NCBI GenBank assembly: GCA_938030175.1
Contig: CALHGQ010000056.1
Location: 1-32,150, forward strand
DNA length: 32,150 nt
DNA from: an uncultured bacterium
GTDB lineage: Bacteria > Planctomycetota > UBA1135 > GCA-002686595
Direction of reading: 5' to 3'
Part shown: piece by piece, positions 14,850-31,673 of the stretch
Layout of the letters: each line of letters begins with the position of its first letter
Position numbering within the stretch: position 1 is the first letter of the stretch
Notes under the pieces: generated by a model
Seen by the model: only the letters and a program-made list of their open reading frames with translations
Databases searched by the model: none
What the model was told of the DNA's origin: nothing
Program-made: the position numbers and the translations under genes

Positions 14850-16358
14850 CTACTGGCCGTCTCTGAACCCATCTCCGCCGTCTCCGTCCCCAGAGCCGCC
14901 GTCGTCGCCGTCTCCGGCCCCGTCATCGCCCTCTCCGTCACCTTTGGCGTCGTCCGGCGTCTCATCGCCACCCTCTTCAGGTGCGTCCTCTTCAGGTGCG
15001 TCCTCTTCGGGCTCAATAGCGCCTTCCTCCCCGGCGTCCATGGCCTCCTCAGGCGCAAGCGCCGACTCCGGGCGGGGACGGATGTGAGCGAAGAACATCT
15101 CCTCCTGCTTGTCGTACACGACCTCGCCGTCCACGATCGCCCATTGGACGAAGGTCTGGTAGTGGAGCACGTCGCCGTCCGTGACGATTAGGTCAGCATC
15201 CTTGCCGACCTCGATGGATCCGATGCGGTAGTCCACGCCGAGGACACGGGCCGCCTCGAGGGTGATGGACTCCAGGGCCGCGTCCTCGGGGAGGCCGCCA
15301 CGGATGGCAAAGCCCGCCTCGATCGGCAGGTGCAGGAGGTCCTGACCCACGATGCCGCCGAGGGAAATACCCCGAGAGGCCGGAACGACCACCACGGGGA
15401 CACCGTGGTTGTGGAGCTTGGCTGCGTTCTCGATGGAGCTACCACCCTCAGCGACCTGGCGCTCGTCCTTGCCGCGGCGGGTCCGCGGAGTGACGATCGC
15501 GGTGACGCCGGCGCGTCCCAGCTCGTCGGCCACGGCCCATCCCTCGCGGGCTCCTTCGATGATCGGACGGAAGCCGTAGCGCTGGGCCAAGGCCGCGATC
15601 TCCACGAGGTCAGTGCGGGTGTTGGCCGCGAAGCGCGGACGCGTGTCCCCGCGCAGGATGCCGACGTACTTCGCGTCGACGCCCTTCCGGGAGGGCTCCT
15701 TCGCCTCCTTGTTGGACCGCTTCTCGACCTCGTACGCGCGGTAGGTCCGCAGGAACGCGGCCGCCTTTGCGAAGTCAGCTTCGACCTTGAGCTGCCCCTG
15801 GGGGTTGCCGTTGCTGTAGCTGATCGTCTCGAACGCGCTCTCCTTGAGCACGAGCCCTTCGACATGACCGCGCTTGAGCTTGGCCACCGTGTTGCCGTTC
15901 ACGGCGGTCGTGATGCCCGCCGCCAGCGCCAGGGTCATGTTCTGGTTGTAGGGATCGACGGAGTCGCTGAGGTCCCCGCTGCCGCCGAAGAGGCCGAACG
16001 AACCGACGGCCACAAGGCCCGGGTAGATCCGCATCCCGTTCACGTCGACCACTTCTGCGCCTTCCGGCACATCCACGTCGTAGCCGAACGCCTCGATCTT
16101 GCCGTTCTTGGAGAGGAGCGTCGCGTCGCGCAGCACGCCCCCGAGACCGGTGTGGATCTCGCCGCCGACGAGGGCGAGGTACTCGTCCTCTTCCTCTTCC
16201 TCCTCCTCTTCTTCGTCCTCCCACGCGTAGGGAGCGGGATAGCTAGCGGTGGCGGAACGAAGAACGTTGGCCGAGGCTCCGGCCGCGAAGAGGAGAGCCG
16301 TCAGGGCCGTGCCCATCGCCCATGCGCCTCTGGATGAAGTCATTTGAAGCTGTTTCAC
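14850..16358 (-). CDS. A11: secreted amidohydrolase-like protein, predicted inactive; acidic N-terminal stretch and D/E/G-rich C-terminal tail
   Basis: Signal peptide (MTSSRGAWAMGTALTALLFAAGASA); amidohydrolase end signature LGVDYRIGSIEVGKDADLIVTDGD; HxH position reads LVAVGSFG. Confidence 0.85.
   Translation of the reverse strand: MKQLQMTSSRGAWAMGTALTALLFAAGASANVLRSATASYPAPYAWEDEEEEEEEEEDEYLALVGGEIHTGLGGVLRDATLLSKNGKIEAFGYDVDVPEGAEVVDVNGMRIYPGLVAVGSFGLFGGSGDLSDSVDPYNQNMTLALAAGITTAVNGNTVAKLKRGHVEGLVLKESAFETISYSNGNPQGQLKVEADFAKAAAFLRTYRAYEVEKRSNKEAKEPSRKGVDAKYVGILRGDTRPRFAANTRTDLVEIAALAQRYGFRPIIEGAREGWAVADELGRAGVTAIVTPRTRRGKDERQVAEGGSSIENAAKLHNHGVPVVVVPASRGISLGGIVGQDLLHLPIEAGFAIRGGLPEDAALESITLEAARVLGVDYRIGSIEVGKDADLIVTDGDVLHYQTFVQWAIVDGEVVYDKQEEMFFAHIRPRPESALAPEEAMDAGEEGAIEPEEDAPEEDAPEEGGDETPDDAKGDGEGDDGAGDGDDGGSGDGDGGDGFRDGQ
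14972..15001. repeat. Two exact copies of a 15-bp tandem repeat (cctcttcaggtgcgt) encoding the EDAPEEDAPE stretch in the A11 tail
   Basis: Read directly: 14972-14986 and 14987-15001; a third degenerate copy follows. Confidence 0.8.
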
Positions 16359-30134: not shown

Positions 30135-31673
30135 CTAGCGGCTCTCGGTGGGAGCCGCGACGCCGCCAGAAATCGTGGCGAGGACACGGGAGGAGCTGGA
30201 CAGGGGATCGCCCGTCAGCACGAGTAGATCGGCCGAACGGCCACGCTGGATCGTTCCAACCTGGTCAGCGACGTCGAAGACGCGGGCCGGGCCAGAGGTG
30301 ATAGCGCGCAGCGCGGCGTCGTGGCTGAGGCCGTGGCCCACCGCGAGGGCTGCGAGCAGCGGAAGGTCCCGGGACGCGCGCGCCGAAGCGCCGCCGGACC
30401 CGATGAGGACGTTGATGCCTGCGGCGTCGAGCTCGGCGGCCAAAGCGAGGCCGGGATCAAGCTCCCCCACAGGACCGCCGGGCTTCGCCGGGCTCGGTGC
30501 GACGATCACAGTGACGTTGCGCTCGGCGAGGGCCGACTTGCAGGCGAGTGCCGAAGTGCCGCCCGCGATGACGAGGCGAAGTCGCGGGTGAGCCTCGGTC
30601 ACACGGAGGATGTCGCGGATCTCAAGGGCGCGCTCGGCATGGACCACGAGGGGCATCTTGCCCTGGATCACGTTCCCGAAAGCAGCCTTCTCTGCGTCGA
30701 AGCGCGGCGCACGCGGGCGCTTGTCTTCCTTGTACTTCTTCTCCTTGACGTCCTTGCCGTCCTTCTCGGCCTTCTCAACGGCCTTGTCGCGCGCCTTCTT
30801 CGCCTTCTTGAAGTCGTCGTTGAGCTCTTTCTCCTTCTCAGCGATGGCGACCTCCCACTCGGCGAGGGCTGCTTCGTACTCGGCGACGTCAGCGGCGTAC
30901 TTGGCGCCGCCGTCCAGCTCGGAGCTGAGCTTGTCGATCTGGCTGAGACGATCGATCGGGTCGATGTTCTGGGGACCAAAGCTGAAGCTCGCTCCGTTCC
31001 TGCCGCCAAAGCTCGCTCCGCCGCCCCTCGGCGCGCCGATCGTGGCGGAGACGGAGGCGTCGGGCAGCACCACCTCGGCGCTCACGGTGCGGATCACCGC
31101 GCCGATGCCGCTGAAGTTCGCCGTCCGGCCCACTTGGCTCCGGGTGAGCAAGACCCCCGCTGCCGCGAGTTCCTGCAGGACCGACTCTTGGCCGTAGGGA
31201 TCCAGAGCGTCGACCGCCTGCGTGGCCGCATTGACGTCCATGGCGCGGGCGGAAGCTGATTCGACGCCTGCCGTGGACCAGGGGTCCATGAACGCAGCGC
31301 AGATCACTTCGCCCTCGATGGCCTCGGCGCCGTCGGGAGCCGTGAGATCGGTTCCTACCGCCGTGATCTTCCCGTCCTCCACGAGCACGCTCGCGTTCTC
31401 AAGCACGTGACCGGGGCGGACAATGACCCGCTTGGCCGTGAGGAACAGAGGCGTCATGGCCGGAGCCTGAGCCTCCTCGGCCTGGGCTTCCTCGGCCTGG
31501 GGCTCTTCCGTCTGGGATTCTGCCGGTTGGTCCTCGGCCGACTCGTCGTCCTGGGGGGCATACCCAAAGGCAGGGGCGGAGACTAGGGACGCGGCCAGCG
31601 CTGCCAGCACGAGCCCTGCGCCTCGAAGGCGAAGGGCAGGTACGGCGGAAGGACGCAAGATGGAGATGCGCAT
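30135..31673 (-). CDS. A1: secreted amidohydrolase-like protein, predicted inactive; acidic N-terminus and Lys/Glu helical insert
   Basis: Signal peptide MRISILRPSAVPALRLRGAGLVLAALAASLVSAPAFGYA fixes the start at 31673 rather than 31811; FMDPWSTAG replaces HxH; FDVADQVGTIQRGRSADLLVLTGDP. Confidence 0.82.
   Translation of the reverse strand: MRISILRPSAVPALRLRGAGLVLAALAASLVSAPAFGYAPQDDESAEDQPAESQTEEPQAEEAQAEEAQAPAMTPLFLTAKRVIVRPGHVLENASVLVEDGKITAVGTDLTAPDGAEAIEGEVICAAFMDPWSTAGVESASARAMDVNAATQAVDALDPYGQESVLQELAAAGVLLTRSQVGRTANFSGIGAVIRTVSAEVVLPDASVSATIGAPRGGGASFGGRNGASFSFGPQNIDPIDRLSQIDKLSSELDGGAKYAADVAEYEAALAEWEVAIAEKEKELNDDFKKAKKARDKAVEKAEKDGKDVKEKKYKEDKRPRAPRFDAEKAAFGNVIQGKMPLVVHAERALEIRDILRVTEAHPRLRLVIAGGTSALACKSALAERNVTVIVAPSPAKPGGPVGELDPGLALAAELDAAGINVLIGSGGASARASRDLPLLAALAVGHGLSHDAALRAITSGPARVFDVADQVGTIQRGRSADLLVLTGDPLSSSSRVLATISGGVAAPTESR

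What the first reader, a model, noticed from the sequence alone, without database searches (positions are those of the whole stretch)
14850..31673. Active/dead split: four contiguous enzymes (A6-A9) with full metal-ligand sets flanked by eight predicted pseudo-amidohydrolase domains
Seen: A6-A9 contain HxH (HSHVAG, HCHIAG, HSHVGG, HTHIH), a candidate carboxy-lysine motif ([LIM]K[IL]AQxxNP), beta-5 His (HTQ or IHTAG), beta-6 His (IDHGSFD or VSHGSFD) and beta-8 Asp (NTDSPVIPQE or NTDSGVIPEE). HxH equivalents elsewhere: A1 MDPWSTAG, A2 IAMRDATG, A3 IDASASIH, A4 VEAHVSRG, A5N VAADSAYA, A5C IDAYGHLG, A10 VNPYSRFG, A11 VAVGSFG. Most other ligands are gone too: A11 beta-6 IIEGARE and beta-8 VVVPASRG; A5N VIDGASQ and ITVPKG. 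A2 and A3 keep a beta-8 Asp; A1 keeps a beta-5 His (VVHAER). Established: these ligands are required for metal-dependent hydrolysis in this superfamily. Inference: the dead paralogs act as scaffolds, binding proteins or allosteric subunits. Systematic loss in intact, well-kept ORFs argues against simple decay.
Basis: partly seen in the sequence, partly recalled or inferred. Interest (0 to 1): 0.9.

Follow-up and report, generated by a model that had tools for sequence, protein, structure and literature searches.

The report
Eight dead enzymes escorting active ones
A 17-kb bacterial operon encodes one to four working amidohydrolase enzymes together with eight relatives that have lost the metal-binding site, and this set has been kept in the same gene order across several classes of planctomycete bacteria, so the "dead" enzymes almost certainly have a job, most likely as partner subunits of the working ones.

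Summary
The window carries 11 co-directional genes encoding 12 amidohydrolase barrels. Four (A6-A9) keep all six metal ligands; eight (A1-A4, A5N, A5C, A10, A11) do not. Among relatives the six ligands are essentially invariant in 137 active sequences and mostly lost in the dead slots. Gene order A1-A2-A3-A4-A5N/A5C-[1-4 active]-A10-A11 recurs in all 54 complete relatives examined, within one order and in planctomycete families outside the class, where the scored arrays have exactly one active gene. Dead slots are under strong purifying selection (dN/dS 0.04-0.21, active 0.02-0.09), stay one-to-one, fuse to neighbours in some lineages, and persist when the array splits into two loci. Corrections: A3's Asp and A1's His are not conserved; A4 keeps beta-1 His1 and beta-4 Lys; A10 keeps beta-4 Lys and beta-8 Asp; A2 keeps all six ligands in 2 of 67 relatives. 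Best reading: an exported hetero-oligomer in which ancient pseudo-subunits scaffold or regulate exchangeable catalytic subunits, analogous to the Pseudomonas ATCase/pseudo-dihydroorotase complex. Physical association and substrate are untested. No description of the array was found in the literature searched.

The parts
30135..31673 (-). A1, pseudo-amidohydrolase (beta-1 MDPWSTAG); first gene of the operon; signal-like N terminus; Lys/Glu-rich insert; no ligand conserved in orthologs
   Evidence: ORF runs to GTG 31811 but ATG at 31673 begins the signal-like segment
29002..30102 (-). A2, pseudo-amidohydrolase (RDATG); keeps beta-8 Asp here and in 25/47 orthologs; all six ligands remain in 2 of 67 relatives
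27782..28978 (-). A3, pseudo-amidohydrolase; beta-8 Asp of the window not conserved (1/52); beta-1/5/6 ligands almost always lost, beta-4 Lys in 11/52
26196..27689 (-). A4, pseudo-amidohydrolase, best-conserved dead slot; keeps beta-1 His1 (H104) and beta-4 Lys (K182); own motif HxxxGxDRxNE
23070..26174 (-). A5, fused double pseudo-amidohydrolase: A5N (about 52-440) and A5C (about 474-1030), the latter with an inserted all-beta domain (689-826)
21694..23067 (-). A6, active-type amidohydrolase: H119, H121, K203, H273, H299, D367
20264..21694 (-). A7, active-type amidohydrolase (HCHIAG, KLAQ, HTQ, DHG, NTDS)
18960..20243 (-). A8, active-type amidohydrolase (HSHVGG, KIAQ, HTQ, DHG, NTDA)
17761..18960 (-). 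A9, active-type amidohydrolase, separate subfamily (HTHIH, KIAQ, HTAG, SHG, NTDS)
16358..17683 (-). A10, pseudo-amidohydrolase; keeps beta-4 Lys K171 and beta-8 Asp D358; Lys/Ser-rich insert
14850..16358 (-). A11, pseudo-amidohydrolase with no canonical ligand conserved; AF2 barrel pLDDT above 90 over most of the core; acidic low-complexity tail
14730..14759 (-). terminator-like hairpin (13 pairs, 9 G-C, T-rich tail) just after A11, probable end of the operon
   Evidence: pattern match only; terminator-like sites in the region no more frequent than in shuffles

Best explanation
An exported hetero-oligomeric amidohydrolase system. Shown by sequence: one co-directional array of 11 genes encodes 12 TM0814/3OOQ-type barrels, eight of which lost the binuclear metal site, mostly in an ancestor shared with planctomycete lineages outside the class, while one to four keep it; the eight dead slots have since been kept one-to-one, in fixed order, under purifying selection. 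Inferred: the eight pseudo-subunits assemble with the active subunits in the cell envelope, providing quaternary structure, substrate capture or allosteric control, while the catalytic slot is the part that duplicates and diversifies (one outside the class, one to four within it). The catalysed reaction is most likely hydrolysis of a peptide or N-acyl-amino-acid bond, by homology to the prolidase/aminoacylase branch of the superfamily.
For: Fixed order in 54 complete relative arrays (51 exact by automatic labels; the other three are two ambiguous labels and one gene split over two frames). Six dead slots and the active slot are each monophyletic across classes, support 0.79-1.0. Ligands: six essentially invariant in 137 active sequences, mostly lost in dead slots. 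dN/dS dead 0.042-0.210, active 0.024-0.086 in seven same-genus pairs. Co-occurrence: of 40 genomes outside the class with a strong A4, 38 have a strong A11; the other two are assemblies of about 1000 contigs whose array contig ends before A11. In G297 and G324 the array is split into A1-A5 and active-A10-A11 on different contigs, yet all parts remain. Neighbour fusions: A1+A2 (L154, L164), A1+A2+A3 (L162), A4+A5 (L157). No flanking gene shared across the order or phylum. Dead A11 and A5 model as amidohydrolase barrels, best PDB match 3ooq. Signal-like hydrophobic N termini on all 11 proteins (heuristic). Several characterised relatives are homo-octamers (PMC11511702).
Against: No direct evidence of physical contact between any two products; operon and fusion evidence would also fit a shared pathway. 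A4 and A10 keep two ligands each and A2 can keep six, so some slots may still bind a metal. Export rests on a hydrophobicity heuristic. Most loci come from metagenome-assembled genomes (Poly30 is a complete genome). The substrate is unknown; no curated enzyme model passes its cut-off.
Confidence: 0.55

Rival explanations
1. The dead members are independent exported binding proteins or sensors: each barrel binds a related ligand, for example to feed substrate to the active enzymes or to a transporter, without forming one complex.
For: A3, A4 and A11 keep 23, 22 and 19 strongly conserved polar residues, which could be a ligand pocket; signal-like N termini.
Against: One-to-one copy number of all eight slots while active copies vary, fixed order, fusions of neighbours and joint retention after array splitting fit co-assembly better. 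No transporter or sensor gene is a conserved neighbour.
Confidence: 0.2
2. Some 'dead' members are enzymes with altered chemistry: a mononuclear or relocated metal site (A4: His+Lys, A10: Lys+Asp) or metal-free catalysis.
For: A4 H104/K182 and A10 K171/D358 are kept in most orthologs; A4 has an own motif HxxxGxDRxNE with invariant G, N and E.
Against: No dead family has more than one strongly conserved His; A1, A5N and A11 conserve no canonical ligand.
Confidence: 0.15
3. The array is a decaying tandem duplication: dead copies are relics hitch-hiking in the operon.
For: A2 shows lineage-specific ligand loss with two complete members, so loss has been gradual.
Against: dN/dS far below 1, intact ORFs, slot monophyly and fixed order at phylum depth, joint retention when split.
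Confidence: 0.02
4. The ligand loss is an alignment artefact and the dead members have their ligands elsewhere.
For: Some columns (A2 beta-5, A10 beta-5, A11 beta-1 and beta-8) were placed inconsistently or not at all by automatic profile alignment.
Against: Alignment-free HxH search: 11 of 532 dead versus 130 of 137 active domains; conserved-His counts.
Confidence: 0.02

Closest known systems
TM0814 amidohydrolase, Thermotoga maritima (PDB 3OOQ)
   Same: Closest solved relative of both active A6 (E 4e-37) and dead A3 (E 2e-26), and best fold match of dead A11 and A5.
   Different: Its sequence carries the full HxH, K, H, H, D set (seen in the alignment); function not known to me; whether it has paralog partners was not examined.
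Pseudomonas class A2 aspartate transcarbamoylase with pseudo-dihydroorotase
   Same: An inactive member of the same superfamily is required for activity of its partner through assembly into a dodecamer (PMC7053772).
   Different: One pseudo-subunit and a non-homologous catalytic partner; here eight different pseudo-domains with homologous catalytic partners, signal-like N termini suggesting export, no ATCase gene found beside the array.
M38-type prolidases, aminoacylases and carboxypeptidases (Cc2672, Sgx9260b/c)
   Same: Same superfamily and ligand set as the active members; several are homo-octamers (PMC11511702).
   Different: Homo-oligomers of active chains; curated Xaa-Pro dipeptidase model scores 54.7-80.9 bits on A6-A9 against a cut-off of 500.
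Imidazolonepropionase (name given in public records to Poly30 A5 and A11 orthologs)
   Same: Same superfamily.
   Different: TIGR01224 scores 27.9 bits (A11) and 64.7 bits (A5) against a cut-off of 298; A11 and A5N conserve no canonical ligand.

Membership tests
Amidohydrolase superfamily (fold) | Distorted TIM barrel homologous to known members | tested here: met
   Pfam hits on all 11 proteins; AF2 models of dead A11 and A5 match 3ooq with E 2e-27 and 2e-23.
Amidohydrolase superfamily, catalytic members | Metal ligands HxH, Lys, His, His, Asp in A6-A9 | tested here: met
   Essentially invariant in 137 sequences.
Amidohydrolase superfamily, catalytic members | Same ligands in A1-A4, A5N, A5C, A10, A11 | tested here: not met
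   At most two of six in the window; mostly lost in orthologs; A2 complete in 2 of 67.
Pseudo-dihydroorotase/ATCase complex (works like) | Inactive superfamily member physically required for partner activity | not testable with these tools
   Needs biochemistry; only genetic linkage, fusion and co-retention seen.
Pseudo-dihydroorotase/ATCase complex (member of) | Partner is aspartate transcarbamoylase | tested here: not met
   No such gene among the window ORFs scanned with Pfam; no flanking gene shared across the order or phylum.
Xaa-Pro dipeptidase (NF051886) | Curated score 500 bits | tested here: not met
   54.7-80.9 bits for A6-A9.
Imidazolonepropionase (TIGR01224) | Curated score 298 bits | tested here: not met
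   At most 64.7 bits (A1 not scanned).

The most novel reading that the evidence does not exclude
A nine-slot heteromeric enzyme: eight different pseudo-enzyme barrels and a catalytic barrel of the same family form one exported assembly with defined positions, comparable in logic to the eight-paralog chaperonin ring, in which only the catalytic slot is exchangeable.
Probability: 0.3. Interest if true: 0.92.

Novelty: new variant of a known kind. Interest (0 to 1): 0.8.

Why it matters
Known pseudo-enzymes usually occur as one inactive partner beside an active one. Here eight inactive paralogs of one fold are maintained with the active one(s) over very deep bacterial divergence, one-to-one and in order. 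It is a natural test of why cells keep inactive paralogs, with built-in intermediates (A2 still complete in two lineages, A4 and A10 half-way). It also corrects annotation: orthologs of A5 and A11 are recorded as imidazolonepropionases although A11 and A5N conserve no metal ligand. A named carrier with a complete genome (Poly30, CP036434.1) makes the complex hypothesis directly testable.

Tried and rejected
Decay (dN/dS); alignment artefact; functional hints from neighbours (only neighbours shared within one family, none across the order); curated enzyme names (none above cut-off); literature searches for amidohydrolase pseudo-enzymes, tandem arrays and planctomycetes gave no description of this array, though the library holds open-licence papers only. 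The single genome-contig scan named only Poly30 and one MAG. AF2 jobs return no coordinates, so interfaces and pockets could not be inspected. Other phyla could not be searched systematically; the named top hits of the A4, A11 and A5 protein searches were planctomycete apart from one labelled only 'bacterium'. The A1 slot and part of the A5N slot were not resolved in the tree. No multimer prediction is available.

Full report
What is there. The window is a whole contig (G000:C56) of a draft planctomycete genome; the nearest named genome, same genus, is Planctomycetes bacterium Poly30 (CP036434.1). On the minus strand, eleven co-directional genes (A1-A11, 31673 to 14850) with short gaps or overlapping stop/start codons encode twelve amidohydrolase barrels, A5 being a double protein. 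A terminator-like hairpin follows A11 (a pattern match only). All eleven products have a signal-like hydrophobic N terminus by inspection and a simple hydrophobicity scan, so export is likely but not proven.

The active/dead split. The closest solved structure to both an active (A6) and a dead (A3) member is TM0814, 3OOQ. I aligned each family by profile-profile comparison to the active family (probability 100, E 1e-55 to 1e-70 for the dead families), placed a few inconsistent columns by motif, and read the six ligand columns in relatives. Active genes: H, H, K, H, H, D essentially invariant in 137 sequences. Dead genes: A1, A3, A5N and A11 conserve none (A3 keeps the beta-4 Lys in a minority); A5C keeps only the second beta-1 His in about half; A4 keeps the first beta-1 His (46/51) and the beta-4 Lys (47/51); A10 keeps the Lys (30/46) and beta-8 Asp (36/44); A2 is mixed, and two A2 orthologs still have all six. 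An alignment-free HxH scan agrees (130/137 active, 11/532 dead). No dead family has more than one strongly conserved His, against four in the active family, so a conserved alternative metal site is unlikely, though A4 and A10 deserve a metal assay.

Relatives. The A4 profile is found in 148 of 154 genomes searched in the class; the six without it are assemblies 62-89% complete. In the 300-genome phylum sample a strong A4 (E<1e-100) occurs in 40 genomes outside the class. Reading the loci (labels), every one of 54 complete arrays has the order A1-A2-A3-A4-A5N/A5C-[active]-A10-A11; 51 by automatic labels, the other three being two ambiguous labels (L079, L086, where BLAST gives the expected slot) and one gene split over two frames (L157). 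The number of active genes is 1-4 in the class and exactly 1 in the ten automatically scored arrays outside it. In a tree of 156 domains, A2, A3, A4, A5C, A10, A11 and the active group are each a clade spanning classes (support 0.79-1.0); A5N is 13/17 and A1 unresolved. So the eight dead slots are probably old, predating the split of these lineages, and the four active genes in the window reflect a later expansion.

Why the dead genes are not relics. Pairwise dN/dS in seven same-genus comparisons is 0.042-0.210 for dead genes and 0.024-0.086 for active genes. Flanking genes are not conserved beyond the family, so the retained order is not background synteny. In genomes G297 and G324 the array has been broken into A1-A5 and active-A10-A11 on different contigs, with all parts kept. 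Of 40 non-class genomes with strong A4, 38 have strong A11; the two exceptions are assemblies of about 1000 contigs whose array contig ends before A11. Neighbouring dead genes are fused in some lineages: A1+A2 (L154, L164), A1+A2+A3 (L162), A4+A5 (L157).

Structure. AlphaFold2 of A11 gives a confident barrel (pLDDT mostly above 90 in the core) whose best PDB match is 3OOQ. A5 gives two barrels and an inserted all-beta domain in A5C, residues 689-826; best match again 3OOQ. The fold is kept though the metal site is gone.

Mechanism. Shown: ligand loss, purifying selection, one-to-one retention, fixed order, fusions, co-retention. Inferred: that the products form an exported hetero-oligomer in which dead barrels fill structural or regulatory positions and active barrels are the exchangeable part. 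Precedent for a required inactive superfamily member is the Pseudomonas ATCase/pseudo-dihydroorotase dodecamer (PMC7053772), and several active relatives are homo-octamers (PMC11511702). The reaction is probably amide or peptide hydrolysis; no curated model passes its cut-off, so I do not name a substrate. I give the hetero-oligomer 0.55, independent binding proteins 0.2, altered chemistry in A4/A10 0.15.

Novelty. The kind, an enzyme with inactive homologous partners, is known; the scale (eight pseudo-domains, signal-like N termini, phylum depth, fixed order) was not found in the literature searched. I rate it a new variant of a known kind.

Noticed in passing
L055 9096-14008 (own genome C229) and L057 7509-10114 (Poly30): A second, smaller active/dead amidohydrolase locus: in the own genome a 1193-aa double protein (dead N half, C half with DCHSHTGI and most ligands) plus a dead 445-aa protein; in Poly30 a 451-aa active-type and a 462-aa dead protein.
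   Followed up: partly
window 2196-2822 (+): A Ras-family small GTPase (Pfam Ras E 5.6e-31) just upstream of histidine-kinase and response-regulator genes (2336-5305).
   Followed up: partly
window 72-1922 (+): Sodium:solute symporter with an EF-hand-like segment DKNGDGVITYRQG in a long insert.
   Followed up: no
Poly30 orthologs of A5 and A11 (P0245, P0129): Recorded in public databases as imidazolonepropionase although A11 and A5N conserve no metal ligand.
   Followed up: yes
L150, L151 (G297, G324): Array broken into two unlinked loci, all parts retained.
   Followed up: yes
window A1 (30135-31673), A5C (in 23070-26174) and A10 (16358-17683): Lys/Glu/Ser-rich low-complexity insert between beta-4 and beta-5 in three dead domains; A4 and A11 have acidic low-complexity C-terminal tails.
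   Followed up: no
L076 15424-16713 and L154 2356-5007: A2 orthologs that keep all six metal ligands, intermediates in the loss of activity.
   Followed up: partly
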